Shown here piece after piece: positions 19,395-64,000 of a stretch of 64,000 nucleotides of DNA (the first letter of the stretch is position 1; every line of letters starts with the position of its first letter). The notes beneath the pieces were generated by a model that was not told the DNA's origin, did no database searches, and saw only the letters and a list, made by a program, of their open reading frames with translations. This stretch comes from an uncultured Flavobacteriales bacterium (GTDB lineage: Bacteria > Bacteroidota > Bacteroidia > Flavobacteriales_G > Salibacteraceae). The translations under genes were made by a program, and so were the position numbers. Where the stretch lies: positions 1-64,000 of the forward strand of contig CALCCE010000266.1 in NCBI GenBank assembly GCA_937899835.1, in the 5' to 3' direction.

Positions 19395-19412
19395 CCTAAT
19401 GAATGGTTAAAA

Positions 19413-22692: not shown

Positions 22693-22716
22693 GACGCAGC
22701 AAAATCATTTAGGTTG
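22693..22716 (-). promoter_or_regulatory. Candidate ECF-sigma-type promoter (CAACC-N15-CGTC)
   Basis: Minus strand CAACC at 22716-22712 and CGTC at 22696-22693, 26 nt before the ATG at 22667. It is listed because it parallels the element before the 14085-19394 gene; the -35 lacks the leading GGG. Confidence 0.3.
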
Positions 22717-22750
22717 TGAACCAGAGTTTCAAATCCTGCACTAATATAAA

Positions 22751-22790
22751 CACTAAAGCCGACCCTTTGGTTAGGAATCGGCTTTAGTAA
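22751..22790 (-). terminator. Terminator after the third T9SS giant gene
   Basis: A perfect 10-bp stem, CTAAAGCCGA / TCGGCTTTAG (22753-22762 and 22778-22787), follows the stop at 22808 on the minus strand and leads into TGTTTATATT. It separates the 22808-27058 gene from the 19563-22667 gene, so the trio is not one continuous transcript. Confidence 0.75.
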
Positions 22791-22807
22791 GTTGATAATA
22801 AGTTAGT

Positions 22808-34701: not shown

Positions 34702-34775
<74 letters not shown>

Positions 34776-36330: not shown

Positions 36331-37080
36331 TTAGCGGCCTATGTTCAATGCACCTTGGACGGCTTCCTTGAAAGAGCGGCCTACAGGAATTTCCAAGTTC
36401 CCCAAGAGAAGGAAATTGGCACCTACCGAGGTGATAGCAGATTTTCTGATAGAAAAAGACCTGTGACATTGGAGAAATTCTTCTTCCGGGAGCTGGTCCA
36501 TGAATTCGCGCATGCTCGACCGCACCCGATGCTCTTTATCGTCGAGCACTACCCGGATGTAGTTCTTTTGTGCTTCCAGGTATTGAATATCGGCAATGAC
36601 GATTCGAACAAACAAATCCTCACCTTTCATGAAGATGGATTCGGGATGCTTCTTTACGGGTGGTGCATTGGTTGAGGATACTGACTTGCTTAGCTGTGGG
36701 CGCGACTGAAAGTTGGTGATGGCAAGCTCAATGGCGGAATAAAGTTCATTTTCTCGAAAGGGCTTGATCAGATAAGCATATGGTTGTATCGCTACCGCAT
36801 TTTGAATGGTTTGCCGATCTCCAAAGGCGGTGAGAAAGAGGAATGGGATGTCGAAATTTTCTTTGAGATAAGCGGCTAACCAGATGCCATCCTGCTCACC
36901 TTTGATGTGGATGTCTAAAATGGCAAGGTCGATTTCCTTAGTTTCAAGAAGTGCAATGGCTTCACTTGCCCTTTTGGCAAACCCCACGACTTGATAACCC
37001 ATTGCTTCAAGCGCGTGCCAAAGGTTCTTGATCGTTAAAAACTCATCTTCGACGATAAGGATTTTTTGAGGGCTGTCCAT
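36331..37080 (-). CDS. LytTR-type response regulator
   Basis: 249 residues from the ATG at 37080 (MDSPQKILIVEDE); the frame extends to 37125 inside the kinase gene. Receiver domain: acidic pair E11/D12, phosphoryl-acceptor Asp at about 56 in LAILDIHIKG, LTAFGD, and Lys in YLIKPF. After a Ser/Pro-rich linker, residues about 150-245 form a LytTR DNA-binding domain (IQYLEAQKNYIRVVL, QLPEEEFLQCHRSFSIRKSA, GNLEIPVGRSFKEAV). It should bind DNA when phosphorylated by the kinase encoded just upstream, whose 3' end overlaps its start by 38 nt. The divergent surface-protein locus from 39680 is a plausible target, by position only. Confidence 0.93.
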   Translation of the reverse strand: MDSPQKILIVEDEFLTIKNLWHALEAMGYQVVGFAKRASEAIALLETKEIDLAILDIHIKGEQDGIWLAAYLKENFDIPFLFLTAFGDRQTIQNAVAIQPYAYLIKPFRENELYSAIELAITNFQSRPQLSKSVSSTNAPPVKKHPESIFMKGEDLFVRIVIADIQYLEAQKNYIRVVLDDKEHRVRSSMREFMDQLPEEEFLQCHRSFSIRKSAITSVGANFLLLGNLEIPVGRSFKEAVQGALNIGR

Positions 37081-39031: not shown

Positions 39032-39208
39032 CCAGATCACAGACCAACTCAGGGAAGGGGTGCTTTTCTTGAAAGCGCTTCCGGGGCCGAAAAAGAAGAA
39101 AAAAGCAAGTGGTTTCAACCGGTTATTCTAATTATGCATTAATGGTCGAAGGAGGTCTCTGAACTCAGGGATAGAATTAGTAAATCCAGCGCATCTTCGA
39201 CCGAATTT

Positions 39209-39679: not shown

Positions 39680-41626
39680 ATGACATTTTGTAACAGACAC
39701 TCCAAACCAATTGGCCTGGCTCTTTTGCCGTGGGGAAAGCAATTGGGACTGTTTTTCGTTAGCTGCTTTTTCTTCGTTGGGCCGTTGGTTTCTACGGTGC
39801 AGGCCCAACAAGCCTCCGACTTCGAAAACCTGGAAGACCTGGGAGAAAAGGGCTTTTTCAAAAATTATATCATCGATAAACTCAAAGCGGAATGGGGGGC
39901 GGTGAAATCGGGCACTCCATTGAGTCTTTCCGGCGGGATTGGGGTAAACATGCGCAGCTACAACGCTTGGGGAGTAGAAGACCGGCAGGCGCCTTTTTTC
40001 TATACGGTCAACGCCAATGCCACCGCCTCTTACTTTAAAATTCAGATTCCCTTTTCGCTGGTCTTGAGCTCACAGGGTACCTCGCAAAATTACCCAACGG
40101 TGGATGCACTTTATCAACCTTTTGTTTCGCTTTGGGAGCAATACACGGGTCGGGTTTCGGGTGCGCAGGAATCGTATGCCCGTTTTGGCATGAGTCCTTT
40201 TTATAAGAGTGTAAAGGTGCACCTCGGCCACCGGTCCATGAATTTTTCGCCCCTCACCATGGCCAATACCAACTTTTTTGGGGTTGGAACGGAGATCACG
40301 GTAAAAAAGAAAATCCGATTGGTGGGCCTTTATGGTCGCTTTGCCGATGCCGTACCCCGCGATTTATCCCTGACTACGCCCAATCCGATTGTGTACGAGC
40401 GGATCGGGCAGGGCGCTAAAGTAGGGTATGGCGATGAAGGCAACTTTGTAGACTTAATATGGTTCACTGCCCGCGACAATGCCAACTCGGTAACGCTTCT
40501 GGCCAACGACACCACCGAGCAAAACGTAAGCCCCGAGGAAAGCCTTGTGTGGGGCATCAACACGCAGTACCAATACAACAAAATTACCTTTAAGTTTGAA
40601 GGCGCTTCCAGCGCCCACTCGCCCAATACCTTTGACCCAGAGGGTGGAAACAGCCCCGCTTTGTATTCCGGTTTTCTCTACAACCGCCGGGTGACGACCA
40701 ACTACAAAACCGCGGTGGATGGTTCGGTTTCGCTGGAGTTGGGCCGATGGGTGCCCAGTGTACAGTACAAACGCATTGACCCGGGTTACCGCTCGTTGGG
40801 CACCTTTTTCTTCAACGATGACTTGGAAAACATCAACGTAGGGTTAGCCAGCTCCTTGTTGGATAACAAGCTACAGGCTCAGGGTGCTTTAGGTGTGCAA
40901 AACAACAACCTCGACCAAACCAAAGAGGCCCGAACCAGTCGAACCATTGGTTCGCTGAATGCCAACCTTACGCTGGGCAAGGTGAATGTAGGGCTCAACT
41001 ATTCCAACTTTACTTCAAGTATTGACTATGTGTTGAACGAGGCGCTCGATTCTCTCAATGCCGTGGTCGTTACCGAAGACGCAGGGGCAAATGTGAGCTA
41101 CACCACCAGCATTGCCAAAGACACCAATGCCTACCAATTGGCTTTTAATTACTCGGCCAATTTGCAAATGGTCAATGACGATGTGGAAGACCCGCTGAGT
41201 TCGGCGGCTTCCGAAATGTTGGTGATCAATGCTTCCCACAGCCTGGCAACGCCTCAGCAGTGGCGCTACACCTTGCGCTTTAACTACAACACCAACGAAT
41301 TGGCCAATACCGTTACCCAGCGCTACGGAGCTGGGGGAGGGGTGGCCAAATCCTTTCTCGATGGCCAGTTGGTGACCGGCATAGACCTCAATTACTTCCT
41401 CAACCGGGCGGGAGACACCCAAAACAATACCCTGAACGGCTCCCTGAAAATCAACTACGTGCTGAAAGAGAAGCACAATTTCAGCCTTGCCACTTCCCTG
41501 GTGAATCAAACCGAACTGGCCGCTGTAGAGTCGGCTCCCAGCTTTTCGGAACTGATTACCACAGTGGGCTATAACTACCGGTTTTCGGTGGCCAGAAAGA
41601 AGAAAGAAGACAAGAAAGCAGATTAG
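39680..41626 (+). CDS. Predicted outer-membrane beta-barrel protein
   Basis: 648 residues from an ATG at 39680, with a long signal peptide ending STVQAQQ. The mature part is a series of alternating polar/hydrophobic strands with aromatic ends (for example YFKIQIPFSLVLSSQ, KKIRLVGLYGRFAD, WRYTLRFNYN), consistent with a beta barrel. The closing strand is ELITTVGYNYRFSV followed by a Lys-rich tail. I recognise no named family. It is 26 nt upstream of the giant reading frame on the same strand, so the two are probably co-transcribed, and it could be an outer-membrane partner for the giant proteins. That is inference. Confidence 0.75.
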   Translation: MTFCNRHSKPIGLALLPWGKQLGLFFVSCFFFVGPLVSTVQAQQASDFENLEDLGEKGFFKNYIIDKLKAEWGAVKSGTPLSLSGGIGVNMRSYNAWGVEDRQAPFFYTVNANATASYFKIQIPFSLVLSSQGTSQNYPTVDALYQPFVSLWEQYTGRVSGAQESYARFGMSPFYKSVKVHLGHRSMNFSPLTMANTNFFGVGTEITVKKKIRLVGLYGRFADAVPRDLSLTTPNPIVYERIGQGAKVGYGDEGNFVDLIWFTARDNANSVTLLANDTTEQNVSPEESLVWGINTQYQYNKITFKFEGASSAHSPNTFDPEGGNSPALYSGFLYNRRVTTNYKTAVDGSVSLELGRWVPSVQYKRIDPGYRSLGTFFFNDDLENINVGLASSLLDNKLQAQGALGVQNNNLDQTKEARTSRTIGSLNANLTLGKVNVGLNYSNFTSSIDYVLNEALDSLNAVVVTEDAGANVSYTTSIAKDTNAYQLAFNYSANLQMVNDDVEDPLSSAASEMLVINASHSLATPQQWRYTLRFNYNTNELANTVTQRYGAGGGVAKSFLDGQLVTGIDLNYFLNRAGDTQNNTLNGSLKINYVLKEKHNFSLATSLVNQTELAAVESAPSFSELITTVGYNYRFSVARKKKEDKKAD

Positions 41627-41652
41627 TAAAAGCGAAGCAGGCACCACATAAT

Positions 41653-44600
41653 ATGGCTTTGAAAAGAATTTTGAACCGGGTTTTCCCAGTAGCATGGGTC
41701 ATTCTTTTGTTGAGCAGCAGCGCATGGGGACAACAGGTCTTCCCGGTAAAGGGAAGCGGTAACCTCATCCCTCCCCATTCCCTCAGTTTATCGGCCTACG
41801 CCGTGGAGCGAGCGAACGACATTCAGCTCAACCTTACCCTCGACGATCCAGTAGAGCTTTCGCGACAAGTGACGTTGCGGCTTTCGGTCCAAAACAACGG
41901 TATTGAGGTGCTGCGCACCAACCCCAACTTCGCGCCCCCGCCGATCACCCTTTTCCAGTTTCAAACCCTTACCCTCAGCGGGGCCGACCTCGCACCGTAT
42001 TTCGATCCCGCTAACCTCACTGGTGTGCAGGGCAATTCCAATTCTCAGGAATTACCCGAGGGGCTTAACAGCATTTGTTTTGAGGTGGTTGATCTGGAGC
42101 GCAACAAAGTGATTTCCAACAATATTTGCTTGTTGGGAAATTTTCGGTACAACCAACCTCCCTTGCCGCAAGTGCCGGCTTGTGGCGATGTGGTGCAATT
42201 TCAGGAAACGCAGAATTACCTGTTCAACTGGCAGCCCTTGCACTTAGGGTCGGGCAATTCGCCTACGCTGGTCAATTATGAGTTTGAGCTGGTGCAACTG
42301 CCTACCAATGTGACCGATCCCAACGACCAGTTTGACTTTGCCCTGCCGATTTATAACACCGTAACGGCTTCGCCAAGCTTGTTGTATACTGCAGCCGAAC
42401 CCCAATTGGAGGTGGGTAAGAACTACGCCTGGCGCGTGCGCGCCTTCGATCCCACCATTTCCAACCTTTTTCTCAACGAGGGTAAATCACTGGTGTGTCC
42501 CTTTTCCCTCAGCAACAACCCTTCGCAGCAAAACACCACCAACAACTATAGCTGTACCACTTTTATGGTGGATTTTGGGCCGGTAAAAAGTGGGAAATCC
42601 GATGGCACCATCCTTACCGGTGATTTGGTAGACCTGGGCTTTTTTGAAATGGAAGTCCTGCAAATTAACGGGCAAGGCAATGGCTATTCCGGCGAGGGGC
42701 TGGTGGCCGTTCCTTTCTTGAACACCAACGTGAAAGTGGAGTTCAAAAACCTCCGCATCAACTCAGAGAATCGGGTGTATGCGGCCGAAAGTGTAGTGGC
42801 CATCAACGAATTAACTGCCACCAACTACACGAACTTGGAGGTGCAAACCCAGGAATGGTCCAGCCTGTTTGGCCCTGCGTTTACTGATGCGCTGGATCAA
42901 TTTCGAACCAGCAGCAGCGGAGCTACCCACTTGGCCGCCAACAACAACATCAGCGATAAAACCCCAATTGGGCTGCCCTTGTATTTTGGCACCAATACCC
43001 AGCCGGTGGTGGTGACCCAAATGCGGTTCACGCCCCGCCAGGCCAAATTTGATTTATTGACCTATGTTCCAGGCTCCAATTCCGACCTGGCGTACTTCGG
43101 TTCGGGGGTAGCCGCTACGCCCGGCGGATTGGTGACCGATGCTCAGTTGGCCCTCATTGCCGAGCAAACGGTACAAACCACTTCGGGCAAGTCGTTTGTG
43201 TTGAGCGATTACCAATCTTCCAACGCCAGCCTGATCGGAGTCGATTGTCAAGGCGTATTGGCCAACGAGTGGGGCGGTTCGTACCAATTGCCGCATCCCA
43301 AATTTCAAAACACCGGCCAGGAAGAAGCGGTGGTACCCTTTACGGGCAAGGTCAACGATTTGGATCAACTGGTGGCGGAGACTCGCGGTTATGAGGTGAT
43401 TTCTACAGCCTATAGCGGAGTGCTTTTCACCGCGAAAAAAGGCCTGCTTGACCTTTCATCCACTTCCAACAGCCCCGACCAAACGTTTCCGGCCTTTTAC
43501 ACCGGCGATCAATCCAAGCAATTTCAAGGAGTAAGCAGTGCCTCCGGCACGATGGTCATGTCCAAAAAATGGGACATCCTGGGCAAGCAGCGCTCCATTG
43601 TGCTGAAAAACGGGGCGTTTTTGATTCACGAGGAAGACCTCTACGCTGAATTTTCCGGAACCAATCTGCTGAAACTGAAAGAGGGCACCATTGCCGATTG
43701 GCACTACAGTGTGAAAACCATGGATGTGCGCCTCGCTCCAAATGACGAGGAGATTAGCATTTCCGGGGAAACGGCAATCCCGCCCTTTGCCGATCCGCTC
43801 GACTACCGAGGCATTTTCGAAACCCAGGGGCAAAACCTGCGGGTCAACAGCGAAATTACTTCGCTGAACCAAGCGCTTGAAATCGACTTTCTGCAAGCCA
43901 CCCTGGCGCTGGACAGTTCTTCTACGCTGGAATTTGCAACCAGCCAAATCGGCAACGAGAGTCTTTTGATGGCCAATGCGGTGTTGAACGGGCAACTGTC
44001 GATGGACTTGGCGGCCTCCACGGTAGAAGGTAAGCTCGAAGCCGATGCGGTGACCAACCTTAAAGCGGTGCTGGGAACCGACAACCTGCAAATTCAAATC
44101 GATACCTTGGGCATTGAAGGGTTGACCATCGATCCCTTTGCTGCCCTGGAAAAACGGTATTCCATTGGACGCATCACCCCCAACCGTAGCATCACCATTG
44201 GAGGGGAAGAGGTGGATCTCAGTGAGTTCACGTTGCAGTATGCCGAATCCAACGATTCTACCACCTTGACCTTTTCGCTGAAACTGGCGAAAGGCGTCAA
44301 CAACATCTACCTTGATTTTATTGGACTGGCGGATTCTAAAGGCAAATACGAGCTTGAAAACATCAATATGCGCGTGGCGCGGGCCAATTGCGATTGCAAC
44401 AATGTCCTGGATGCTTCTACCGGATATTTTCCGCACCGCGAGGATGGATACGACCTGATGGCCAGTGCCGACCCCAAAGCTCCGTTTCCGTCGGCTAACT
44501 TCCCGGTGTCCAACAATGTATTGCGACTCACCCTTTCCGACAGCTATTCGGCCCACATCAACATGCAGGGCAACCACGCCAAAGGCAAAAGCACTTTCTC

Positions 44601-46629: not shown

Positions 46630-46638
46630 TTCAACATT

Positions 46639-49600
46639 GTGATTGGAGGAGATGGAGTGCCGGATGATCCTAACGGTGGCAGCAAGTCCGCCACCAGTAT
46701 GGGTGGTTCCAAAGCCATGGGTTTTTCGTTGGAGGCCATCGCCATGTTTGGCAACACCAAATACAAATCCAAAAAGGAGCAGTACAGCAATGCCTACCGC
46801 TACTTCATGGTCGATTTCCTGGGCGTGGCGGAACAGGGGATTCCACTTTCCCCCTTGCCCGTTTCTGTCAATGGATTAGGGGGAGGTTTGTACTACAACG
46901 TAACGGCCGCTAACAAAGAATTGCACGCCACTGCCTTTGGTAAACCAGGGGCTTCCACCTTTGGGGAGGGCGCAGAACCGCTCGAAGTGGATTTGGCCGA
47001 ACTCTACAATAACCGTAACCAAGGCGATAATACCACCACCAGCACTTCCAACACCACGACTAACCCACCGATAGGCGGAGGTGCGGGAGCCGCCGGGGCC
47101 GCCGGATCTTCCAAGAACCGTGGGAACAACCGGAATACCACCGAAAACGGAAATAACAGTAATTCCAGCGATGGAGACGATGACGATGGAGACGATGACA
47201 GTGACGACCCCGACCCTGCCGATGAGGCGGCCATGTCGTTGCGCTCGGGCTATGAATACACCCCCAGCCGAGGAACGATAGGCTTGTACATGTCCACCGT
47301 ATTGGCGCTTACCCCACAACCACTCGTTGTGGCTGAGCCTTCCGTTGGGGTGGAGATTGTGGCCAACAACAACAATGGAGGCATTGGCATTCGGAAAGTC
47401 ACCCTTTCGGGAAATGCCTACTTGAAACCGCCAAGCGTAATCGACCGGGCCGATGCCGAGTTCACCGGTGTTTTGAACTCAGAAGTCGACTTCGTAAACA
47501 ACTACTTCAACGCTTCGGTCTCGGTAACTTCCAACACCGAACTCCTGACCATTAATGAGGGTGAAATCAGCTTTCATGCCCAGTTTGGAACACCGGCTGA
47601 AGCCTCTCAATTCAAGGCAGGCGAGTGGCGCGTCAAAATTGGAAGTCCTCAACAGCCGATGGGTGGAACCTTCCCGATACCTGCTACAGGCAACGCGGTG
47701 AGTTTGAGTGTAAATGCCTATTTGCAAACGGGCCACCACATTGATAACATTCTGCCGATTGATCAGGTAGTGCCCGGCTGGGATGCCGGTGCACCCTCCG
47801 ATTTTGGTAAGCGCAAATCGGGCATGTCGAGCGGAAAAGGACTGATTCTGGGCGCCTCCTTTGGTATTCCTGAAACGCAATACTCCTTCGCCATCTTTTA
47901 TGCCTCTATCTACGCCAAGATGGGTTTTGACCTTTCGATTAAGCAATACGAAGGGCTGATTGATTGTGACGGAGACGGCAGGGCAGAACCTTTTGGAATT
48001 GATAATTGGTATGCCAAAGGTCGGTTGTACGCAGCTGCCGGAGCCGACATCGGAATGCAAGTCAACCTAAACATTGGTTTGGTGAAGATCGAAAAGAAGG
48101 TCTCGATTTTTGATGCGGCTGCGCTGGTGAACCTCAAGTTTGAAATGCCCAACCCGTCCTATTTCGCGGGCAACATCCGGGGGCGCTTCTCGGTTATGGG
48201 GGGCGTTGTAAGCGGGAAATTCAACTTTAAATGGGAAGCGGGTGAACGGTGTGCCGGAATGTTGACCAACTCTCCGGTGGGCGACATAGAAGTGATTTCG
48301 GAGACCTTTCCCGAAAACCAAGAACAGGCTCCTGTTTATGTGGTGCCCAGTGTTGCCTTTGATATCCCCGTCAACATTCCCATCAGTGTGATGGATGAAA
48401 AGGGGAAAACTGAAAGTTGGACCCCCAGGTTGTCCCACTTTTTGATTCAGGAATATAATCCACAGGCCGAAGTGGATTGGTCAAAGCACGATCAGCAAGA
48501 TAAATACTGGGTCAGTTTGCCGTACAGCTTTACGGCTGCTCCCAATGGCTTGTCGGCTAAAATCAACATCGATCAGTTTCTGGCGCCCAACACCCGGGGC
48601 AAATACCGTTTGTACGCCCAGGTCGATTGGTACCGGGATAACCGTACGCAATCTGAGGGAGCAGAGGTAAAGCGCATTCCCTTCAAAACCGGAGAAGGAA
48701 TTTCCAACATTGTGCAAGAGATTGTGCAGGTGCAAGCTCCAGGCCACCTGCAGCGCTACTGGCACAAGGGCTATGCAGAACCCAAGATTGTACTCACCCA
48801 CGACATGGGCGAACAAGATGTGTTCCGGCGTTCAGAAACCATTGAGGAAGGCGAAGACGAAGGACTGGAAATTGAATACGACTACAAAGTAAAGCTCACC
48901 CCGGTGGCTAATCCGGAGCAGGCTCTTTTCCTGCCCATCGACGAGTACCCGAAAGCTACCAACTACGAGCAAGAGGTGATCCGCTACAAAAACGTAGGGC
49001 AATTCGAGATTCCTTATGTATCGATGGAAGCCCGGTCGGGTAAAGAAATTCGCTTTGTTTCGATGAACGAACGCGACCTGGATAAAGGGGCCATCTATGC
49101 GTTGCAAGTCATCCGCGAGCCCACCAACCTCGATGGCGCCAGTGATGCGGTGGTGCAACAATCGGAAAATGTGTACACCGTAGACGCCAACGGCAACCCC
49201 ACCAATGAGGTAGCCTACGTCAAGCAAATCACCAGCCTGGGAGAAAGCGCGAAAGCCGGCAACCTCAAGTTGAAGTACACCGAGATTATTTACACCACGC
49301 ATTTTGGGGTAAGTCGGTACGAATCCCTGGCCGACAAATGGGAGAGCGTTACCGTTACCGGGCATTCCCAGCCCGTAACCCCCGATGCCAGCTATAATTA
49401 TGTGCGCACGCCCAATCCCAACAACGACCCGGAGCGAGTAGCCAATTTGTATCACAAAGGATCGCCGACCAGCAGTACGTTCCACTTTATTGAAGGAAAC
49501 CTGGAAGGGTTTGATCAATACGATGTGGTTCGCCTCAATAAAAACCTGCAATTCGATGCAGACATCCATCCCAATGAACTCTTTCTCTATGGCAACCTCT

Positions 49601-55600: not shown

Positions 55601-58600
55601 CGAGCAATGTGGTGTGGCCTGCTAACCAAATAAAGCCGGAAAAACTGGTGGCTTACAACCACTACGGGCAGCGGATTCTGTATGCTGATGCGAAAGAAAA
55701 ACATACCTACGCGAGTGCGTCCAATGGGCTCACCTACCGCGATGGCATCACCACCGCCAACACCTTGCCCACAGGAGAAACTACCTTGGTAAACGCCACC
55801 GCCTTGATTCCAGCCCAACCTGGAAGTTCTGCTTCCAATCAACGGGTAACGGTTTTTGCCGAAACGTTTGTGAACGATTTTCAACAAGATGGCCGGGTGG
55901 TGAAGGTGAAAAAGCCGGTGCTGGTCAAAGCACAACCCGGCACCACTCAAACGGTGTTTTTGTACCCTTTAACTTCGATTGACCAACGCACGGCGGCAGG
56001 GCAGAACTACACACTCGGCACCGATCCGGCATTTGTGCCCTACAAAGCCACGAAAATTCCTTGGAACGATTTGCTGGAACCTGAATCAGGAGTGGTGCTC
56101 AAAACCTTGAACGATCCAACAGCCGGATCGGTAACGCCCCAAACCTACTTGGTTTTTAACGATGGCAACGGCACCAGCAGCGCCTTTGAAGAAGTTTATG
56201 AAATCAACAACCTATCGGTGCAGGAGCGCTATGGCAAAAGTGGGACCAACCGCCTGTATACGCCCGGAACGCCTAAACCCTCGGATGCCTTCAATGGCCA
56301 ATACATTGCAGTAAACCATGCTGTATCCGGTTTGGAAACCGGCAATTACAACAGCCTAATTCTGAAAAAAGGGGGCGATGATTATGTGTGGTTCAAACAA
56401 GACCATCAATTGGGCTACCATGGCGTATTGGAGCCCCTTCACGACCCCAATCGCTATTTGAAGCCCCGCTTTGACATTGAGTTACACCCTGGCCAGCGTT
56501 TGGTGTTGACTAATGCCCAGCAAAATCAGGACGAGATTGACAAGATCTTCATTTACGGAAAGAAAACCGGGTTCTATTCCTGGCAGTTGCTTGATACGAA
56601 GTTTAACGCTGGCACCAACCAAGCTACCGGAGATACCTATTTGTCCTCCAGCCTGGTGAATGACTTGCGGGGTGATTTTGTCGCCTATGAAGAACTCATG
56701 GTTGCGGTGCTGTTGAAAAATGGTCAGGGCTACACCCGGCCTTTTGTCAAGTCGCTGCCCGTGGACTCGGTGATGGGATTTAATATCTCTACCCAAAAAT
56801 CGTCTGAGCCCAGGGACTTGGAGTTCACGGAGAACGAAAACGCCACCTTGGCCGTTCGGGGAGAATACCTCTATTTCCACGGCAACAGTATCGCGAACGT
56901 CGGTCAAAACCAGTTTCAAGAAGTTTTGATTAAGCGTGGAGAAACCATTGTTGCCCACTCCTTCAATAGTGTCATAGTGCTCAACCGTTTCCCCAACGAT
57001 GAGCAGGAGTTTTTTCCACTTACGGTATATGTCAAAGACAATTTCGGGAACATTTACCAGCGCACTTTTAATTCCTGGGAGGCTGATGATGACTTTGTGT
57101 TAGGGATAGTAAAAGAGCGTTCCTCGGTTCAGTGGTTTTCTAATAACTATCATAATTGTGGCGCTATCAATTTATCGGTTCTTTATGGGTCGGAGACCAT
57201 TGACTGGAAAGAGGGAACGAGACAAATTTCGAAATACTTCTATCCTGAGAGCTATTCGTTCCATTTTAAGTTAGATGGGGTCAACGAAGCTCAAATCTTT
57301 GAAAAAGGGAACCAGGTTATAGAAGTCTCTGTCACTGATAAGGTATTGCGGGTGCTGGGTGATGATTATCCGGTCTCCTGGTTAACCAATGGCTGGCACC
57401 ATCTTGTAGTAAACCGTTATGGGAATGTGCTTCTTGATGGCATTCAGGTTTCCCTCGATCATAGGGTCAAAATTACTGGGACGGAGCAGTCGGTTGTGTT
57501 GGGCGCTGAGCAGGTATTTTTGGACAATATTCGTGTCACTGAGAATAGGTATTCCGGATCGGTTTATGGCTTAACACCAACCAGCACCGAGGTTGAGGAT
57601 ACGAAATTGATGTATTTCAATGCTTTTGACTCAGAAGTCCCCTTGATTGAAGAAACGTCAAAAATTGTATTGAATGTCCCTTCTTGCGGCAATTCTCCGG
57701 CCACGATTCCCAATGATGTCCCTCAATCCCCCCACGAGCAGCAGGCTAATTCCACAAACAACACTGTGTTAGATGCTACTGGGTGGACTGAAGCTTGGGG
57801 GGAACTGGTAGAGGTCTCTGGAGAGGCAAGTAATCAACCCGAATACCTCAACTCAAATTACGGCAAGGAAGAAACCATGCAGTTGTGGTTTGGTTATAAA
57901 AGTGGGGCAGAATTGAACACCCCTATCTTTAAATGGGCAGGCTCCTCTGGGCACCAGACCTTTAGTCATCGTCAGTTGCACCTCAAAGATGCTCAAACCC
58001 TGGTGATCAATGGTTCAATTGAGATAGATGTCTCTGGCATTATTCAGACCCAGGCATCTCCCGATGGCATTGTCTGGAATCACCTCACTTTAACCGGGAT
58101 TACTACACGACCGGCCTATCAGCAATTTACCATGCCTCCGGAGAACTGGTGCGATTTGTACCTGAATGGACATCATGTGCAACGGTTGAATGTTAGCGTT
58201 ACCCACCGCAATAGTTGGTTTTCCACTTTGCCGGGTTACAACTTTGGCCATTTGTATTATGACGACATCACCAGTTACGCGTATGCTATGTCTTTTGAGG
58301 AGGTACGCAGCAGCCTTCAAACGAAGCCGATGAATACTGCCCACTCCTACCTCGATTTTCAGGGGGTAGACCTATCCAGGGGAAGCTATCTGCCGCGCTT
58401 TCAAAAAGGAAACCGTTACACGTTTCATAGAAAGGACCGTTTCCGAAAATCAACCAGCGATTTTAACAAATCGTCATTTAGCACAGTCAATAAAGTTTAT
58501 GAAGTTGAGCAAACAGCCTATCAGTTTGTAGGTACAAATCCCATCACGGTCGATGATGCAGATCTTCGCTATTCCGACTTTACCTGGACCGCATGGGTGA

Positions 58601-60531
58601 AACCAACCGGAAAGGGGAAAGTAGTTTCCTTCTCCAGTGTGGTAGAATGGGGCTTGAAGGAGCAAAATAATGCCTTGAAACCCTACTTTAAAACCAGTTC
58701 AGGGGTTGAGGTAGAAAGCACTGCTGAAGTTCAAAAAGATGCCTGGAATCACCTTGGGCTGGTGGTAAAAGAGGGTGAAATCAGCTTGTTTGTCAATGGC
58801 AATCCTGCGTCTGTAGGTATTCCTGTGGCAGGAGGAAGCACTAATCTTATCCGTTTACTTGCCGGGCAAATGATCATAGGAGGAGAGTTTGAGGCTGAAA
58901 TTGATGGGTTGAGTTTTTACAACATTGGCTTCGAGCTTTCCGAAATCAGAAAAGCCTACTTCGGCGAACTACAACCACTGTCGAGCCACCTGGTTTATGA
59001 CTACGATTTCAACAAAAAGGAGTTGTTCTACAAGCGGATATCTTCTGGGGAGGTAGTTCGAAGCCCACAAACAGCTTTAATAGAGCGCTTGAATGGCAAG
59101 GCCAACGGGGTCTTGAACAATCAAGTCACTATGTATAATGGACAGGAAATCCTTTCAACTTCCAGCGAGTTTTGGCCCATCTCCGACCGCCAACCCGTCA
59201 CCCGCCCCGCTTCGGCAGAGGTGAGCAACTATGCGCTAAATAACACAGGTGGGCTCAGTGCCAAACTCACTATCCCGCTAGAGGGTAGTGGAACGACCAA
59301 AAGCCTTTCGTTTTGGTTGAAAACCTCCAGTTCCTGTGAAGATTTCATGGACTTGGTAGGCCGTGACCTTCTTATTGAAAACGCTGGCAGAAAAACGTGG
59401 AGTGAAGTTTTCTCTCTTGATAACGGTACCTGGCAGCACCTGGTGATGACATCGGAGAACGGAAGAGTGGTGCTTTATAAAAACGGGGTACGCTTGGAAG
59501 AGAGGGGGGCGTTCAATGCCATTTACAACGCGAAAGCCATTGAGTTTTTGGGCAACCCCAATTGCGGTGCTGAAGTGGATGAAATATCGGTTTGGGAAGG
59601 AACGCTGGAGCAGTCGCAAGTGCAGGAACTGTACCACCATGGCGTGAATGCACGGGCTGAAAACCTGATTGCCCACTTCAGTTTTGACAACGACAACAAC
59701 GAAAGTGGTGCGGTGCTCAATTCCAAATTGGGCGGACCTCGGGCCACCATCAGCGGCAACTACCTCGACCTGCGGCAGCCTTCTGACCATGCCTACGATC
59801 GCGCCACCACCGTACCTCCTGCTGCGGAAGATTACGTGTATGTGGCCTCCAAGGAAGCGTCTTTGATCCCCAATGAAAACTGGAACGGTGGCAATTACCA
59901 AGTAGCCAGCATCTACGCCCAGGGGCGGACTTCGGAATTGTTGGGCCTGGGACGCAATGAAAGCCCTCAAAACGCCACTTTCGGAACCTGGCTCAAGTTA
60001 AAAGCGCTGCCGGAAGGCGATACCGAAGTGCGGGAAATCGCGCGCTGCCTCATTACGTTGTACCGGAAAGGCAACCAACTGGGTATTGGCTCCACTGCGC
60101 AGGTGAATTGGGCAGAAAAAGCGATCCCGCTGGACCGGTGGGTGTACGTGCATTTCACGTATTCCATCGCAGGTACACAACTCTACATTGATCTTCAACC
60201 CCAATTCACAACTCTGCCGAGCGTGACTTCGCTCACGGGTGATTTCCGACTCGGAATCGACTTTGAAGGCTACCTGGAAAACACCGTGGTATGGAACAGC
60301 CAGCGTTCGGAAGAACACATGTACCAAGACCTGCTGCAACAGGCTGAGGGGAGTTTTGCTACCAATCAGCCCGGGTTGATGCTGTTCTATCAATACAACA
60401 TGGACAAGCTGGGAGCATGGAAGCTGACCGATACCCAAGGCCGCTACGACCTCAGGTTGTTCAACATCAACCGGCAGAAAATTTTCCTTCAAGATACTGA
60501 ACCGGCAGAGGTTCCTTTACCAATGAATTAA
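46639..60531 (+). CDS. Giant secreted protein, C-terminal part with DW-signature modules and LamG domains
   Basis: 4,630 residues in the same frame as the gene at 41653, with no signal peptide and only a GTG as formal start; it is the continuation past the TAG at 46627. Order: about 1-110 completes the module interrupted by the stop. An acidic Asn/Gly/Asp-rich linker lies at 127-195. Beta-rich domains (ASFGIPETQYSFAIFYASIY) precede a linker into Ig-like segments. About 1570-2940 contains irregular modules with an NDW/KDW signature (KTVYQTIGTKDWNRG, DVFEQTITDNDWSRR, DPNDWKKG). From about 3490 to the end there are five LamG (concanavalin-like) modules such as FTWTAWVKPTG, SLSFWLKTSS and FGTWLKLKALP. 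No T9SS sorting domain is seen at its C-terminus. Codons 3380-4180 differ in base composition from the rest. An exposed surface or extracellular polymer role is inferred. Confidence 0.75.
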   Translation: MIGGDGVPDDPNGGSKSATSMGGSKAMGFSLEAIAMFGNTKYKSKKEQYSNAYRYFMVDFLGVAEQGIPLSPLPVSVNGLGGGLYYNVTAANKELHATAFGKPGASTFGEGAEPLEVDLAELYNNRNQGDNTTTSTSNTTTNPPIGGGAGAAGAAGSSKNRGNNRNTTENGNNSNSSDGDDDDGDDDSDDPDPADEAAMSLRSGYEYTPSRGTIGLYMSTVLALTPQPLVVAEPSVGVEIVANNNNGGIGIRKVTLSGNAYLKPPSVIDRADAEFTGVLNSEVDFVNNYFNASVSVTSNTELLTINEGEISFHAQFGTPAEASQFKAGEWRVKIGSPQQPMGGTFPIPATGNAVSLSVNAYLQTGHHIDNILPIDQVVPGWDAGAPSDFGKRKSGMSSGKGLILGASFGIPETQYSFAIFYASIYAKMGFDLSIKQYEGLIDCDGDGRAEPFGIDNWYAKGRLYAAAGADIGMQVNLNIGLVKIEKKVSIFDAAALVNLKFEMPNPSYFAGNIRGRFSVMGGVVSGKFNFKWEAGERCAGMLTNSPVGDIEVISETFPENQEQAPVYVVPSVAFDIPVNIPISVMDEKGKTESWTPRLSHFLIQEYNPQAEVDWSKHDQQDKYWVSLPYSFTAAPNGLSAKINIDQFLAPNTRGKYRLYAQVDWYRDNRTQSEGAEVKRIPFKTGEGISNIVQEIVQVQAPGHLQRYWHKGYAEPKIVLTHDMGEQDVFRRSETIEEGEDEGLEIEYDYKVKLTPVANPEQALFLPIDEYPKATNYEQEVIRYKNVGQFEIPYVSMEARSGKEIRFVSMNERDLDKGAIYALQVIREPTNLDGASDAVVQQSENVYTVDANGNPTNEVAYVKQITSLGESAKAGNLKLKYTEIIYTTHFGVSRYESLADKWESVTVTGHSQPVTPDASYNYVRTPNPNNDPERVANLYHKGSPTSSTFHFIEGNLEGFDQYDVVRLNKNLQFDADIHPNELFLYGNLYMEHIQEEHRKVGKLKNPNTPVFLTWPNKTPTDPKYGSTEWGSELVYNNESLGYNNSRWLDVPPADWTHLNIGDNTKQCWGNAVGIYTFELFYREAYHSSSKSVAGEANNTDEGTAYAFLSDFFKPHWYWELDYAYEIKQVADHHNLLSEQEIASGLLEDRIVSQPEMRLKSAQQATLLLRNSRNQVIDMQAKTLQAPAWFGVNKHIDRFKDFTFVVNPKWEPVHQRIVRFTHGGSSNNTVWMGETAPWVENMELRLKFPDISTWSAMDERLTLDQRNNYTNKMLVVPDVWDDGDGTSYPPQGTVVQPAAEAPAIEAVIYKPAVDPNNEANLSLEYPRTWNNGVQELIVVNQRGEKTYHQVGQEILLAKAELVDSVEQRTGQQLSPNQPLVLLTDNRSGERGASVETTTFTGKVIMRYGDEYYLADPPNSKLEMTAGSNWTGTILFTKYSNTNAVAAEVARTDTMNVSPATVHQNIFGKVALTRLWLKDDNTIRVAHPENGGLYDYQVPEAVSIHHPQTNRRLGLIYTQGGLADHEVKVQYGYQNVLAGKGQVYTEVKVDEVADLNLSYGQTFQLALRMANGKTVYQTIGTKDWNRGWIDVNPVTQATRNDFTRFDGYANVNYGGALSVAESQLVSDVAAGKSPMPLLFASEENLHLEYSTNLDNPSGATTTQPDIINDNYKAMVITNAANELVLFRSKAISYAPAYLKENGTYDWERFYQDQNLNAGYYPVNENDWSKVNYVGMPLNGQQLLNKATYPEVKAYLIKTDNSVVSSKVNMNATNFDGPTHYRSFTAASKDALNEVQAAFPKAIFSLEPQGEIRSESPLGATLSSDIQHIAILRDGLRVFVGTIGENGQLAGTHYLYDRNEAVAGGAVNDPLALGFGSRTNVSSLSLEADATYTLYLQTNTGDVFEQTITDNDWSRRSFFVTKPSSVTQEIFQPEAGEWAYVAYDQQDEVHRLFYTDYAGDLVTPNADLRQVVVNAGGQLDAYYVSFGALEKANGELAVKPNQEGLPLGGMHLTGESGELYLVYERVNKVDIFKIELSGEGTFTYAQPVAQIPSSLNAQLPIAALQLQKTSGSIIDFATNTTNILSGLSLWLNEWESSKPIGNLMLAANGITNWRYDYESNSTTYPYNLTGGDVQLFKRKVVQQNLSTNEELTAYLSYQDAQAGNVQGQMSLTPADWEAGVKFIFKENTPPQQGFVMNDQLYKAWGFSVGSNSGQKTHLFQLNDNNSTDQEKTYELTAPVLLANGNDLHSLWLPNTDLAYHSGQELSGAITTAWTHIEGKWYTAGQVAGQRFALKASTTAGPGNLSYLLLDAQGYILQGGAFTDLDGTDLEGLSLSGKQLVVRYKGNLFQANIQISSGTRTVTWTKITDPNDWKKGFLPYPQFGFQLRNNRALHVAGSGSEDAELYVFKADGSLKAMWSSQFSGNPNEVVYQTFPKQGSLVGVLETSDQLVLRYNNQFVQHSGADWSSDRFAINSDALFSTTIPSSYAAKKEVLWVYAQQDKSGLQVGNLLVGNTIQNLKVLDRQGRTVYLLKKQSGKDTYTAWTYTFQGDEADYYIEKSSADRPLNTASNGFDYPIDLAIPYSAWGELYVECTEGTYRVALRNLQGGDRAAADAYPTNPNPEQDKLKAANVAEPEDKNLTVSLYLDTETHRVYFQNAREHIEKVAIVRDGTQAWYYRSLTDGLDYASDGTPSKACTRIPKNGEAFSLPDNDVFVLIQYLNGKTQTVDFSQSNYWVLKPNEGDNSALALNYPGIDAGETALVYLTEFGLAFSSLSNVGNVAVENAADNQQIFWSKSKEITPHEPILGFPTGVQYQLYFALDGILQEALIDANSCGAILYQPSNKDLSVLNPQASEELLRQVPVSTAIYTKQNELMGGYMGSTAQGSGKQVQYHRLLNPDGGNYPFTTRNITLRDLTAAEIDFMNSAEVVLTSSNYEDWRTNDILQGATDYIQVAELDNGDIIKLYTDSEGISRYSEADASYFPNQVQLSGTDASNVVWPANQIKPEKLVAYNHYGQRILYADAKEKHTYASASNGLTYRDGITTANTLPTGETTLVNATALIPAQPGSSASNQRVTVFAETFVNDFQQDGRVVKVKKPVLVKAQPGTTQTVFLYPLTSIDQRTAAGQNYTLGTDPAFVPYKATKIPWNDLLEPESGVVLKTLNDPTAGSVTPQTYLVFNDGNGTSSAFEEVYEINNLSVQERYGKSGTNRLYTPGTPKPSDAFNGQYIAVNHAVSGLETGNYNSLILKKGGDDYVWFKQDHQLGYHGVLEPLHDPNRYLKPRFDIELHPGQRLVLTNAQQNQDEIDKIFIYGKKTGFYSWQLLDTKFNAGTNQATGDTYLSSSLVNDLRGDFVAYEELMVAVLLKNGQGYTRPFVKSLPVDSVMGFNISTQKSSEPRDLEFTENENATLAVRGEYLYFHGNSIANVGQNQFQEVLIKRGETIVAHSFNSVIVLNRFPNDEQEFFPLTVYVKDNFGNIYQRTFNSWEADDDFVLGIVKERSSVQWFSNNYHNCGAINLSVLYGSETIDWKEGTRQISKYFYPESYSFHFKLDGVNEAQIFEKGNQVIEVSVTDKVLRVLGDDYPVSWLTNGWHHLVVNRYGNVLLDGIQVSLDHRVKITGTEQSVVLGAEQVFLDNIRVTENRYSGSVYGLTPTSTEVEDTKLMYFNAFDSEVPLIEETSKIVLNVPSCGNSPATIPNDVPQSPHEQQANSTNNTVLDATGWTEAWGELVEVSGEASNQPEYLNSNYGKEETMQLWFGYKSGAELNTPIFKWAGSSGHQTFSHRQLHLKDAQTLVINGSIEIDVSGIIQTQASPDGIVWNHLTLTGITTRPAYQQFTMPPENWCDLYLNGHHVQRLNVSVTHRNSWFSTLPGYNFGHLYYDDITSYAYAMSFEEVRSSLQTKPMNTAHSYLDFQGVDLSRGSYLPRFQKGNRYTFHRKDRFRKSTSDFNKSSFSTVNKVYEVEQTAYQFVGTNPITVDDADLRYSDFTWTAWVKPTGKGKVVSFSSVVEWGLKEQNNALKPYFKTSSGVEVESTAEVQKDAWNHLGLVVKEGEISLFVNGNPASVGIPVAGGSTNLIRLLAGQMIIGGEFEAEIDGLSFYNIGFELSEIRKAYFGELQPLSSHLVYDYDFNKKELFYKRISSGEVVRSPQTALIERLNGKANGVLNNQVTMYNGQEILSTSSEFWPISDRQPVTRPASAEVSNYALNNTGGLSAKLTIPLEGSGTTKSLSFWLKTSSSCEDFMDLVGRDLLIENAGRKTWSEVFSLDNGTWQHLVMTSENGRVVLYKNGVRLEERGAFNAIYNAKAIEFLGNPNCGAEVDEISVWEGTLEQSQVQELYHHGVNARAENLIAHFSFDNDNNESGAVLNSKLGGPRATISGNYLDLRQPSDHAYDRATTVPPAAEDYVYVASKEASLIPNENWNGGNYQVASIYAQGRTSELLGLGRNESPQNATFGTWLKLKALPEGDTEVREIARCLITLYRKGNQLGIGSTAQVNWAEKAIPLDRWVYVHFTYSIAGTQLYIDLQPQFTTLPSVTSLTGDFRLGIDFEGYLENTVVWNSQRSEEHMYQDLLQQAEGSFATNQPGLMLFYQYNMDKLGAWKLTDTQGRYDLRLFNINRQKIFLQDTEPAEVPLPMN

Positions 60532-60566
60532 TACCCCTTGTGAAGTTTGAAAAAGCGTACCGAGAA

Positions 60567-63500
60567 ATGAGGAATGGGATCCATAAAGCAGTAGCTACAC
60601 CACGCGGTGTTTCCGGAATAAACTTACGCCAGTGGGGATTAGTGGTGTGGTTTACCCTGATGATGGCTTCCGGTAGTTGGGGGCAAGCCAACAATCCGGC
60701 CTTGTACTTTGCCGCCGAGCCGCGCGCCAAATACGTGGAGCTACCCGTAAAGGCTTACGCACAGGATTTTACCTGGGGCTGTTGGGTGAAAGCCGAACAA
60801 CTGCAATCGGGCAGCAATCGGTTGATCAGCATCGTAGAACCCGGGAAAACCCTCAGCAACCTCACAGTTTTGTTGTGGTCATCGGGGAAAGTTCGCTTGT
60901 GGGCAGGCAATGTATGGGCAGGAACCGCACCTACCGCCTGCAACCTCGACCAATGGTACCAAGTGTTTTTAGTCCGCTCCGGCAACCGGCTAACGGTGTA
61001 CCTGGACGGTGAGGTGGTGATTGAACACCTCTTGAGCAGCTCCCAACTTTTTCAGGGCAATCTTCGGCTGGGGGATCGTTTTACTGGCTACCTCGACGAA
61101 ATTTCCTTTTGGAACAAAGCCTTGACGGTTGGCGAAATCATGGCCTTGAACTACCAATCGGTAAACCCCAACGTTCCTGGCCTGGAGGCCTACTTCGATT
61201 GTGGCGACAAATCACCGAGCCTGACCAACCAGTGGAAGATTTTTCCCCACGACAAAGCCCCCGAATGGACCGGCACTTTTGTAGACCTCAATTTTGAAAC
61301 GGCCTGGAAAAACAGTGACCAGCAAGTAACGCCTTCCAGCATTACCACCAACGGCAATTATGGGTTTAAAAAAGCCACCGCTTCGGATTACCTCGCCTTG
61401 CCGGACTTTCCCTTGTCGCAGTCGGCCTTTAGTGTGGAAATGGAAGTGAATCCCAAAAGCACCGCAGACGAAAAACGACTGCTTTCGGTGAACGACCAGA
61501 TTACGGTATCGGAAACGCATTTTTACGTGGAGGGAGCCGGGCAACAAGCACTGCCAGCCCTCAACCCTGATCAGCCCAACCACGTGGTGCTCACCTTTAG
61601 CAACGGTCAAGTAGTGGCCTACGTGAATGGCGTAAGGTCCAAATCGATTTCCACCAACATTAACTTGTCGCAAGGCCTCGAAAACCTGCAGGTATTGCCT
61701 ACGATCGCCTCGGGCGAATTTACGGATGCGGTGGTCGATGAAATTTTGGTGTGGGACAAAGCCTTGAACCAGTTTGAAGTGGCTCAACGCCGGCGAACGG
61801 CGGCCACGGGCACCGAACCGGGGTTGCTGGCTTACTACGACTTTGAAGAAGACAACCTGCCCGCCCGCGAGATTGGCAACAGCGTATCCGCCGGGCCGGT
61901 AGCAGTGGTTGAAGGCAATTATTTTGAAACCTGGGCGGAAGTGACCAACCTAACCGCACCTACGGATGCGCTTCCCAGTGGGCAAAAAGTAGACTCCTAT
62001 TTCTACCTGGGGAAATCCCGTGAAATGAGTGCTACGAACCCAACTGCCTGCGAAACACCGGCTATCATTGGCAGTATGGACCCCAAAACCGTTGACGAAT
62101 TCACGCTCGAGTTTTGGTGCTGGGCCTTCTCTTTTACCGGCACAACCGAAATCCTTACTGCAGGCATTCAGGTGGAACGGGTCAACAACCAATTGCGCCT
62201 CAAAGTACAGGACGGTAACCGCACCGTAGAAACGCCACTTTGGACACCCGCCATTGGCAAAGCCTGGAACCACATTGCGGTTACCTACCAAAACAAAAAA
62301 CTGCGCATCTATTTTAATGGGGTAGAGGCAGGAGCACCGATCATCATTGAGCAATTAAAACTCAATCCGGAGGTACGCATCGGCACCAGCGCTAAGCTGT
62401 GGATCGACAACCTCATCGTTTGGGAGCAAGTACGACCCAACCTCAAAGGGGATTTTTCCATCAACGAGTTAAGCGATATTTCGGTGCCGGATCAAAACGA
62501 CTTGCTGGCATTTTTCGATTTCGACAACCCCGACCACCTGATCTACGACCGAAGCAAGCGCAACGGCCACCTGACCGTCCACAACTATGAACTCCTGGCT
62601 GGCGGCCCGAAAAGGAACGTAAAACCAGTTACTGCTTCCCGCACCTTCTCCGACCGAAAAAGAACCGCCTCCTATACCGTGGATAAAGGGCGTAGCAACG
62701 CTTCGCTGTGCCTGGATTTTACCGGTGACACCCGTGTGGAGTTTGAAGATTTTCAACTGAGCTCCGAAAACCTCACCATTCAGTTCATGGTGCGCCCAAC
62801 GGCCCCAGATCAAAACGCATGGCTCATCAAATTTGTGAATCCTGGAAACGGTTTGGGCATTAAGCTCACCCAAGGCAAGTTGAACCTGTTGATGGGCAAC
62901 CGGCAGCAGGTATTGTCTCCGGATGTCCTATCCGTAAATGAATGGCATTTGGTGACTCTGGTGTACAACAGCAACGAAAAGCGCCTCTATACCTACCTCG
63001 ATGGTGAATGGATCGCCGAGCCTATAGCGGTAAGCAACCCCGCTGCCATCTCCCGCAAACTAAACGTGCCGCTGGTGATGGGAGAGGATTTTGTGGGGCA
63101 AATGGAGAATGTAGACTTCATGCCCATTGCGCTCACCCCGGTTGAAGTTGCCGATAGCAAGTACAACTGGAAAAACCATGCTTTTTCGTATCGTTTTTAC
63201 TTCAATTACAGAACGTTTTTTGCCTACGAACCCAAAACAAGAACGTATGCCGACATCATTGGGTATAACCCTCAAACCCAAAGCCGAAAGCAAAGGGTAA
63301 GGGAAGCGCTCTATGAAACTACACCGGCTACCAGCGGAACCAGATTGGTATTCGATACCGAGGGAACTTATCGTTTTGCGCAACTAAGCCACCTTTCGCT
63401 AAACAAGGAACACACCACCCTGTTTTTTCTCACCAACACCCAAGCCAACGGAGCCGGTGAAATTGTGGGCATTCCCGGGGTGTTGAGTTTAACCAATACG

Positions 63501-64000
63501 CAGCTGTTGATCGAAGGCCACAACCCGCTGGACATTCCCGAAGTCACTGCCGGAGAAGAACAACAGGTAGCCTTGGTGTTTGACCATGGAAAAGCCACCG
63601 TTTTTGTCAATAAAAAACGGAGCCGTTCCATCGCTTTGAGCAGCCAGTTTTCGATGGAGGATGCCACTTTGCGGTTTGGAAAATCCTCGATCGGTACGGT
63701 TGACAACATCTATTTGTTTGATCGGGCGTTCAACGAAAAGGAAATCCAGCAATGGAACAAAAGCTACGTAGGCACTACCGACCCAACCCTCATTGGCTAC
63801 TACAACTTTAATGGTTCCGACCTGGCTACCCGATTGGCGAATAAAAAGACCGGAACCGACTCACCCGCCATTGAATGCATCGGCGACTACCGGCAAGCGC
63901 TAAAAGCGGGCACCCGTAAGGGAGTCAGCAATGCGCTTCCCGACAATACGGCACTTTTCTCCCTTCATGCGTTTCCGGAGACCACCTTAGACCGGGACTG
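60567..64000 (+). CDS. Secreted multi-LamG protein, 3' end missing (off window)
   Basis: Open from the ATG at 60567 (alternatively a GTG at 60540, 9 nt after the giant's stop) to the right edge, 1,144 codons. The signal segment is GLVVWFTLMMASGSWGQA. At least five LamG/concanavalin-like modules follow, roughly at residues 45-190, 260-420, 505-660, 710-865 and 920-1085. Each opens with a DFT or SLxF strand and closes with WD/EKALNxxE and LLAYYDFEED-type blocks (FTWGCWVKAEQL, FTLEFWCWAFSF, LTIQFMVRPTA, HTTLFFLTNTQ). The modules resemble those at the C-terminus of the giant at 46639, so the pair shares building blocks. Glycan or matrix binding is expected for LamG but not proven. The frame has no stop, so C-terminal domains, including any sorting domain, are unseen. 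Confidence 0.8.
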   Translation, partial: MRNGIHKAVATPRGVSGINLRQWGLVVWFTLMMASGSWGQANNPALYFAAEPRAKYVELPVKAYAQDFTWGCWVKAEQLQSGSNRLISIVEPGKTLSNLTVLLWSSGKVRLWAGNVWAGTAPTACNLDQWYQVFLVRSGNRLTVYLDGEVVIEHLLSSSQLFQGNLRLGDRFTGYLDEISFWNKALTVGEIMALNYQSVNPNVPGLEAYFDCGDKSPSLTNQWKIFPHDKAPEWTGTFVDLNFETAWKNSDQQVTPSSITTNGNYGFKKATASDYLALPDFPLSQSAFSVEMEVNPKSTADEKRLLSVNDQITVSETHFYVEGAGQQALPALNPDQPNHVVLTFSNGQVVAYVNGVRSKSISTNINLSQGLENLQVLPTIASGEFTDAVVDEILVWDKALNQFEVAQRRRTAATGTEPGLLAYYDFEEDNLPAREIGNSVSAGPVAVVEGNYFETWAEVTNLTAPTDALPSGQKVDSYFYLGKSREMSATNPTACETPAIIGSMDPKTVDEFTLEFWCWAFSFTGTTEILTAGIQVERVNNQLRLKVQDGNRTVETPLWTPAIGKAWNHIAVTYQNKKLRIYFNGVEAGAPIIIEQLKLNPEVRIGTSAKLWIDNLIVWEQVRPNLKGDFSINELSDISVPDQNDLLAFFDFDNPDHLIYDRSKRNGHLTVHNYELLAGGPKRNVKPVTASRTFSDRKRTASYTVDKGRSNASLCLDFTGDTRVEFEDFQLSSENLTIQFMVRPTAPDQNAWLIKFVNPGNGLGIKLTQGKLNLLMGNRQQVLSPDVLSVNEWHLVTLVYNSNEKRLYTYLDGEWIAEPIAVSNPAAISRKLNVPLVMGEDFVGQMENVDFMPIALTPVEVADSKYNWKNHAFSYRFYFNYRTFFAYEPKTRTYADIIGYNPQTQSRKQRVREALYETTPATSGTRLVFDTEGTYRFAQLSHLSLNKEHTTLFFLTNTQANGAGEIVGIPGVLSLTNTQLLIEGHNPLDIPEVTAGEEQQVALVFDHGKATVFVNKKRSRSIALSSQFSMEDATLRFGKSSIGTVDNIYLFDRAFNEKEIQQWNKSYVGTTDPTLIGYYNFNGSDLATRLANKKTGTDSPAIECIGDYRQALKAGTRKGVSNALPDNTALFSLHAFPETTLDRD

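What the first reader, a model, noticed from the sequence alone, without database searches (positions are those of the whole stretch)
39680..64000. Candidate undescribed surface system: barrel + TANFOR giant + LamG giant
A predicted outer-membrane barrel, a giant exported protein with a TANFOR-like N-terminus, DW modules and five LamG modules, and a second multi-LamG exported protein lie head to tail with gaps of 26 and 35 nt. The two giants share module types. No T9SS sorting domain is visible at the end of the first giant, so the barrel may be part of its export or anchoring. The locus starts beside a divergent TPR-kinase/LytTR pair. I know no named system with this composition.
Basis: partly seen in the sequence, partly recalled or inferred. 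Interest (0 to 1): 0.7.

Follow-up and report, generated by a model that had tools for sequence, protein, structure and literature searches.

The report
Barrel-paired TANFOR giant surface-protein operon
A bacterial operon pairs a large outer-membrane barrel that no protein-family library names with a giant exported protein of a class known mainly as antibacterial toxins, and the pair recurs across a whole phylum, so the barrel is a likely missing partner in delivering those toxins.

Summary
The genes are there. Two corrections: an in-frame TAG (46627-46629) splits the "giant", and the second LamG protein runs past the window. The barrel prediction holds (AlphaFold pLDDT 84, about 26 strands). 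The three-gene composition is only partly a system. Barrel and TANFOR protein belong together: of the 100 best barrel hits in 395 phylum genomes, 63 have a TANFOR-type head directly downstream and 22 more have one within 20 kb, all on the same strand; 78 of the 79 genomes holding those hits have a TANFOR-type protein. The usual third gene is an FN3 protein just outside the window. The LamG giant and the LamG/DW half of the TANFOR protein have no relatives in the loci examined and look private to this genome.

TANFOR proteins are a published class of polymorphic toxins (Jana et al. 2020), so "undescribed system" is too strong; but that paper does not mention a barrel, and the barrel family has no Pfam or NCBIfam model. 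Best reading: a lineage-specific, lectin-ended (probably adhesive) version of a phylum-wide barrel-TANFOR-FN3 operon. The barrel would be the dedicated outer-membrane shuttle, anchor or conduit that recognises the N-terminal Ig-like TANFOR head. The pairing is shown; the mechanism is inferred.

The parts
39680..41626 (+). Barrel (P0001, 648 aa): outer-membrane barrel of about 26 strands (residues 81-638) with an N-terminal hydrophobic segment
   Evidence: AlphaFold model pLDDT 84.1, pTM 0.75; closest solved fold MtrB 6r2q_B, Z 19.6, rmsd 5.3 over 464 residues
41653..46629 (+). TANFOR-type protein, first half (P0002, 1658 aa, hydrophobic N-terminus), ended by in-frame TAG at 46627-46629
   Evidence: head homologous to TIGR02542 proteins by profile-profile comparison
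41734..42537 (+). TANFOR head: two Ig/FN3-like beta sandwiches
   Evidence: AlphaFold pLDDT 94.5; residues 139-263 FN3-like, Z up to 9.7
46630..60531 (+). Continuation of the same frame after the stop (P0003, 4630 aa from GTG 46639): first 1000 aa match the second half of TANFOR proteins or a separate neighbouring gene elsewhere; the rest, with DW-containing stretches and LamG modules, is private in this sample
58531..58947 (+). Best LamG_3 stretch of P0003 (residues 3965-4103)
   Evidence: Pfam PF13385, protein E 4.8e-25, 3 stretches pass
60540..64000 (+). LamG giant (2486 aa in full, P0007; to contig position 68000; ATG alternative at 60567), 8 LamG_3 stretches, no sorting domain found
36331..37125 (-). 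Response regulator, receiver + LytTR
   Evidence: Pfam
37043..39118 (-). TPR + HisKA_2 + HATPase histidine kinase, divergent from the barrel
   Evidence: Pfam

Best explanation
This is a lineage-specific member of a phylum-wide operon: barrel, TANFOR-headed exoprotein, FN3 protein. All are exported by Sec (inferred from N-termini). The barrel sits in the outer membrane and recognises the conserved N-terminal two-Ig TANFOR head, the one part shared by exoproteins whose C-termini vary, and so shuttles, anchors or conducts that exoprotein to the surface, probably together with the T9SS. In some relatives the far end is a recognisable toxin; here it is a string of LamG (ConA-like lectin) modules, so this copy more likely serves adhesion. 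The extra LamG giant is a local addition. Shown: genes, predicted folds, linkage, co-inheritance. Inferred: interaction, direction of transport, adhesion.
For: Linkage in 395 phylum genomes: 63 of the 100 best barrel hits have the TANFOR-type head directly downstream (<=1.5 kb), 22 more within 20 kb, none on the opposite strand, 13 with none on the contig, 2 far. By my own rough estimate (one or two TANFOR genes per 4 Mb) chance would give well under 1 in 1000. Presence overlaps: 87 genomes have both, 35 barrel only, 5 TANFOR only, 268 neither. Independent named set: 52 of 75 loci with room have TANFOR next, 2 more by overlapping ORFs. Barrel and TANFOR distances correlate, Mantel r 0.92 over 53 pairs, 0 of 2000 permutations as high. 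TANFOR identity: 43 of 61 heads hit TIGR02542, best 1.3e-43; the window's clade joins them by hhalign, probability 100, E 4e-65. Variable ends: of 73 C-termini, AHH 3, and one each EndoU, NS_2, WHH, PT-HINT, ADP-ribosyltransferase, TNT, colicin DNase; the window's has LamG_3. SprA is in 122 of 122 barrel genomes and 92 of 92 TANFOR genomes, against 304 of 395 overall. Own genome has SprA and at least 150 type A sorting domains.
Against: No interaction was tested. 15 of 75 named barrel loci show no TANFOR within the stretch held, among them several Tenacibaculum-type 790-aa barrels. TANFOR hits covering only positions 129-299 match the second, FN3-like domain, so part of the 63 may lack a true TANFOR domain. 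SprA is so common (166 of 171 genera) that its co-occurrence says little. The mirror-tree correlation does not remove shared species history. P0002's own head does not hit TIGR02542. In this assembly the LamG half is cut off from the TANFOR head by a stop. Most C-termini scanned match no known toxin family.
Confidence: 0.55

Rival explanations
1. The TANFOR protein is exported by the T9SS as Jana et al. proposed, and the barrel is only a co-regulated surface protein (for example a porin or receptor) with no role in its delivery.
For: All TANFOR genomes in the sample hold SprA; T9SS substrates are enriched near TANFOR genes.
Against: The barrel is tightly linked on one strand across the phylum and follows TANFOR paralogue types; a bystander would be expected to come and go. 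No T9SS sorting domain was found on P0003 or the LamG giant.
Confidence: 0.2
2. The barrel is itself the export channel: a T9SS-independent pathway in which an N-terminal Ig-like head opens a wide barrel, in the manner of usher or two-partner secretion.
For: Predicted barrel is in the size class of MtrB (26 strands, recalled) and ushers (FimD Z about 15); the head is two Ig-like domains; the conserved part is N-terminal while C-termini vary.
Against: No usher-type periplasmic domains and no POTRA-like region seen in the model's secondary structure; all holders also have SprA.
Confidence: 0.2
3. The genes of the window are decaying: the stop at 46627 marks a pseudogene and the LamG half is not made or not exported.
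For: In-frame TAG; the second half has no signal-like start; five relatives have one intact frame.
Against: It is the only stop in about 6300 codons and the rest stays open; a single base error in the assembly is as likely. Elsewhere the second part can be a separate gene, in the cases read with its own signal-like N-terminus.
Confidence: 0.2

Closest known systems
TANFOR polymorphic toxins of Bacteroidetes (Jana, Salomon, Bosis 2020, PMC7073777)
   Same: N-terminal TANFOR-type head, very long exported protein, FN3 and T9SS-related neighbours, T9SS-bearing genome
   Different: Window copy ends in LamG modules, not a recognised toxin, with no immunity gene seen; the paper does not mention the barrel
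T9SS type B substrates with cognate PorP/SprF-like shuttles (PMC12618676)
   Same: Giant surface protein and a dedicated outer-membrane protein encoded side by side as cognate pairs
   Different: Barrel of about 26 strands with no PorP/SprF family hit; substrate lacks a type B sorting domain and its conserved part is N-terminal
MtrB outer-membrane barrel (PDB 6r2q)
   Same: Nearest solved fold: Z 19.6, rmsd 5.3 over 464 residues
   Different: 13% identity and no profile match to any PDB sequence; gene context unlike, no cytochrome genes noticed beside it
Chaperone-usher ushers FimD/PapC
   Same: Large barrel paired with Ig-like exported proteins; Z about 15
   Different: No plug or usher N- and C-terminal domains apparent in the model; no chaperone gene noticed

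Membership tests
TANFOR polymorphic toxin class | N-terminal TANFOR domain (TIGR02542) | tested here: met
   Direct HMM: no hit for the window head. By homology: 22-52% identity to 60 other family heads and hhalign probability 100, E 4e-65, to a set in which 17 of 19 hit TIGR02542
TANFOR polymorphic toxin class | C-terminal toxin domain or toxin gene next door | tested here: not met
   C-terminus is LamG_3; next genes are a LamG protein and an FN3 protein
TANFOR polymorphic toxin class | Downstream immunity gene | tested here: not met
   No small gene between the giants or before the FN3 gene
TANFOR polymorphic toxin class | Sec signal peptide | tested here: inconclusive
   Hydrophobic N-terminus seen by eye; no predictor was run
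TANFOR polymorphic toxin class | Genome carries T9SS | tested here: met
   SprA 2617 bits; at least 150 type A sorting domains
T9SS substrate | C-terminal sorting domain, type A or B | tested here: not met
   None in P0003 or P0007 by Pfam
PorP/SprF shuttle | PorP/SprF family sequence | tested here: not met
   No such family among Pfam or NCBIfam matches of 69 barrel rows at E<=0.01
Usher | Usher fold with plug and periplasmic domains | tested here: inconclusive
   Barrel part aligns (Z about 15); the model's secondary structure shows no extra globular domains

The most novel reading that the evidence does not exclude
The barrel is an unrecognised outer-membrane delivery component of a whole class of Bacteroidota polymorphic toxins and adhesins: a wide barrel that reads an N-terminal Ig-like address (TANFOR) rather than a C-terminal sorting domain, defining a new N-terminally addressed route to the surface, alone or as a T9SS branch.
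Probability: 0.25. Interest if true: 0.85.

Novelty: new variant of a known kind. Interest (0 to 1): 0.6.

Why it matters
How TANFOR toxins leave the cell is open in print: Jana et al. could only hypothesise T9SS export, and the proteins of this window lack the usual C-terminal sorting domain. A dedicated barrel linked to TANFOR proteins across the phylum gives that question a concrete gene to delete. It also supplies a family marker (the barrel has no Pfam or NCBIfam model) for finding divergent TANFOR loci such as this one, which the curated TANFOR model misses.

Tried and rejected
The TIGR02542 search of the own genome (E up to 10) and of 198 phylum genomes found nothing; since 43 of 61 heads hit the same model in hmmscan, this was not taken as absence. 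The first related-loci scan with P0001 alone found no relative; the alignment A1 then found 510 stretches, of which 80 were kept. PDB sequence searches gave nothing for the barrel and only chance-level hits for the head. DW modules as a repeat family: not supported. A general link to the TPR-kinase/LytTR pair: rejected as general. In the named set 3 of 68 eligible loci have a LytTR regulator within 4 kb upstream, 2 of them with a kinase. In the window's GTDB family, by reading, a kinase/LytTR pair lies directly upstream in 4 of 9 loci. FN3 gene as universal third member: in the named set 13 of 30 loci with enough room show it within 6 kb, so it is common, not universal. VIA-align does not list PorV, PorP or TpsB among the 50 rows shown; this was not used as evidence. 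A3-type segment and barrel in one frame (for example L115, 947 aa) was seen but concerns the FN3-like second domain, so it is noted, not counted. Literature: 'TANFOR' gave 3 papers, one of them on the subject and one naming the domain in a list; further searches listed no paper on the barrel; only open-licence PMC text is held, and supplements could not be read.

Full report
What is there. The window is contig C266:1-64000 of an unnamed 6.9-Mb genome; the contig is 74,884 bases long. On the + strand lie a 648-aa ORF (39680-41626), a 1658-aa ORF (41653-46629), a same-frame 4630-aa ORF (46639-60531) and a LamG ORF that in the full contig reaches 68000 (2486 aa), followed by an 889-aa FN3 protein and an open-ended LamG/HYR protein. 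Its single 'giant' is interrupted by one in-frame TAG at 46627-46629. In five relatives (L117, L119, L120, L121, L123) one open frame matches both halves, so the joined form is probably ancestral; whether the stop is real, an assembly error or read through cannot be told here.

The barrel. An alignment of P0001 with 68 relatives gave an AlphaFold model with mean pLDDT 84.1 and pTM 0.75; residues 81-638 form about 26 strands. The closest solved fold is MtrB of the Mtr complex (Z 19.6, rmsd 5.3, 464 residues); part-length AlgE and OprD-type porins (Z 15-17) and ushers (Z about 15) follow. Sequence profiles find no PDB relative. Of 69 barrel rows no more than 3 match any one Pfam family at E<=0.01 (generic OMP_b-brl), and no NCBIfam model matches more than one. 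So this barrel family is unnamed in the libraries used.

The TANFOR head. The curated TANFOR model (TIGR02542) does not hit the window's protein, nor any of 8 close relatives tested one by one, but it hits 43 of 61 heads in the wider alignment, best 1.3e-43. The window's clade and a set of 19 heads, 17 of which hit TIGR02542, align over 280 columns with probability 100 and E 4e-65. The head folds with pLDDT 94.5 and reads as two beta-sandwich domains; the second is FN3-like (Z up to 9.7).

Linkage. In the window's GTDB order 9 of 42 genomes (own included) have the barrel. In the 9 loci of the 8 relatives a TANFOR-type protein follows directly in 9 of 9, and an FN3 protein follows it in 7 of 7 loci where the contig reaches. 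In 395 genomes drawn across the phylum, 122 have a barrel hit and 92 a TANFOR-type hit at E<=0.001. Of the 100 best barrel hits, 63 have the TANFOR-type hit directly downstream within 1.5 kb, 22 more within 20 kb on the same strand, none on the opposite strand; 13 have none on the contig and 2 are far. The 100 hits lie in 79 genomes, of which 78 hold a TANFOR-type protein. Over all hits 87 genomes have both, 35 only the barrel, 5 only TANFOR, 268 neither (genomes are related, so the tiny Fisher value is not a probability). An independent scan of named genomes with the barrel alignment found 510 relatives and kept 80: Saprospiraceae (closest, up to about 40% identity), Cytophagales, Flavobacteriaceae, Chitinophaga and others. 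Of 75 of these with at least 700 nt downstream, 52 have TANFOR next, 2 more by overlap (L165, L170), 6 elsewhere on the strand, and 15 none in the stretch held; 5 had too little room. Barrel and TANFOR distances correlate (r 0.92, 53 pairs, 0 of 2000 permutations as high). In three genomes with two loci each, barrel and TANFOR paralogues fall into the same two types, by my reading of nearest neighbours.

What does not belong to the core. The LamG giant and the part of P0003 beyond residue 1000 have no relative in the 115 fetched stretches at E<=1e-6, whereas the first 1000 residues of P0003 have 21: in 11 loci as the second half of a TANFOR protein, in 10 as a separate neighbouring gene. In the own genome the LamG giant has only weak matches elsewhere. 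The kinase/LytTR pair recurs in the window's family (4 of 9 loci directly upstream, by reading) but rarely outside it (3 of 68).

Function. TANFOR proteins were defined as polymorphic toxins with variable C-terminal toxin domains, hypothesised to leave by the T9SS (PMC7073777; I read abstract, introduction, the first results sections and the section on neighbourhoods, and searched the text: 'barrel' 0, 'porin' 0). My C-terminal scan agrees: among 73 C-termini (72 complete TANFOR proteins and the window's) Pfam finds AHH in 3 and EndoU, Endonuclea_NS_2, WHH, PT-HINT, ADP-ribosyltransferase, TNT and colicin DNase in one each, while the window's has LamG_3 and most others match no toxin family. 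The C-terminus therefore varies and the head is constant, so a cognate outer-membrane partner would most simply read the head. A precedent for adjacent substrate-barrel pairs is the SprF-like shuttle of type B T9SS substrates, shown to be needed for secretion in F. johnsoniae (PMC12618676; abstract and passages seen); that family differs in sequence and signal. SprA is present in all 122 barrel and all 92 TANFOR genomes against 304 of 395 overall, but 166 of 171 genera have it, so this is weak support for T9SS involvement. I hold it likely (about 0.85) that barrel and TANFOR protein act together, and about even that the barrel delivers or anchors the TANFOR protein through its head. For this copy an adhesive role is inferred from the LamG modules alone.

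Verdict. A real, conserved barrel-TANFOR(-FN3) operon in a lineage-specific, LamG-extended form with an extra LamG giant. The TANFOR class is known; its barrel partner appears not to be described in the text searched.

Noticed in passing
window 46627-46629: Single in-frame TAG inside an otherwise open frame of about 6300 codons; five relatives have an intact frame over both sides.
   Followed up: partly
window 14085-27058 (-): Three large T9SS type B (CHU_C) substrates in a row, 1769, 1034 and 1416 aa, one with SprB repeats, others with PKD and Ig_7 domains, about 12 kb from the barrel.
   Followed up: partly
L115:14636-17479 (-) and other genomes: Barrel and a TANFOR-second-domain-like (FN3-like) segment in one open frame of 863-1027 aa in several distant families: possible fusion of the two partners.
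   Followed up: no
L101, L102, L105, L106, L109 and Tenacibaculum loci L157-L190: Flavobacteriaceae-type barrels carry a C-terminal extension of about 230 residues (ORFs 780-850 aa), and some of these loci have the TANFOR gene upstream or none nearby.
   Followed up: no
L105, L106, L109 downstream of the TANFOR gene: Small genes directly after the TANFOR protein look like immunity genes by position.
   Followed up: no
L111, L112, L114: TANFOR-type proteins of about 3900-6400 aa in other families, directly after the barrel in L111 and L112, matching only the second head domain.
   Followed up: no
window 34702-34775 (+): tRNA gene.
   Followed up: no
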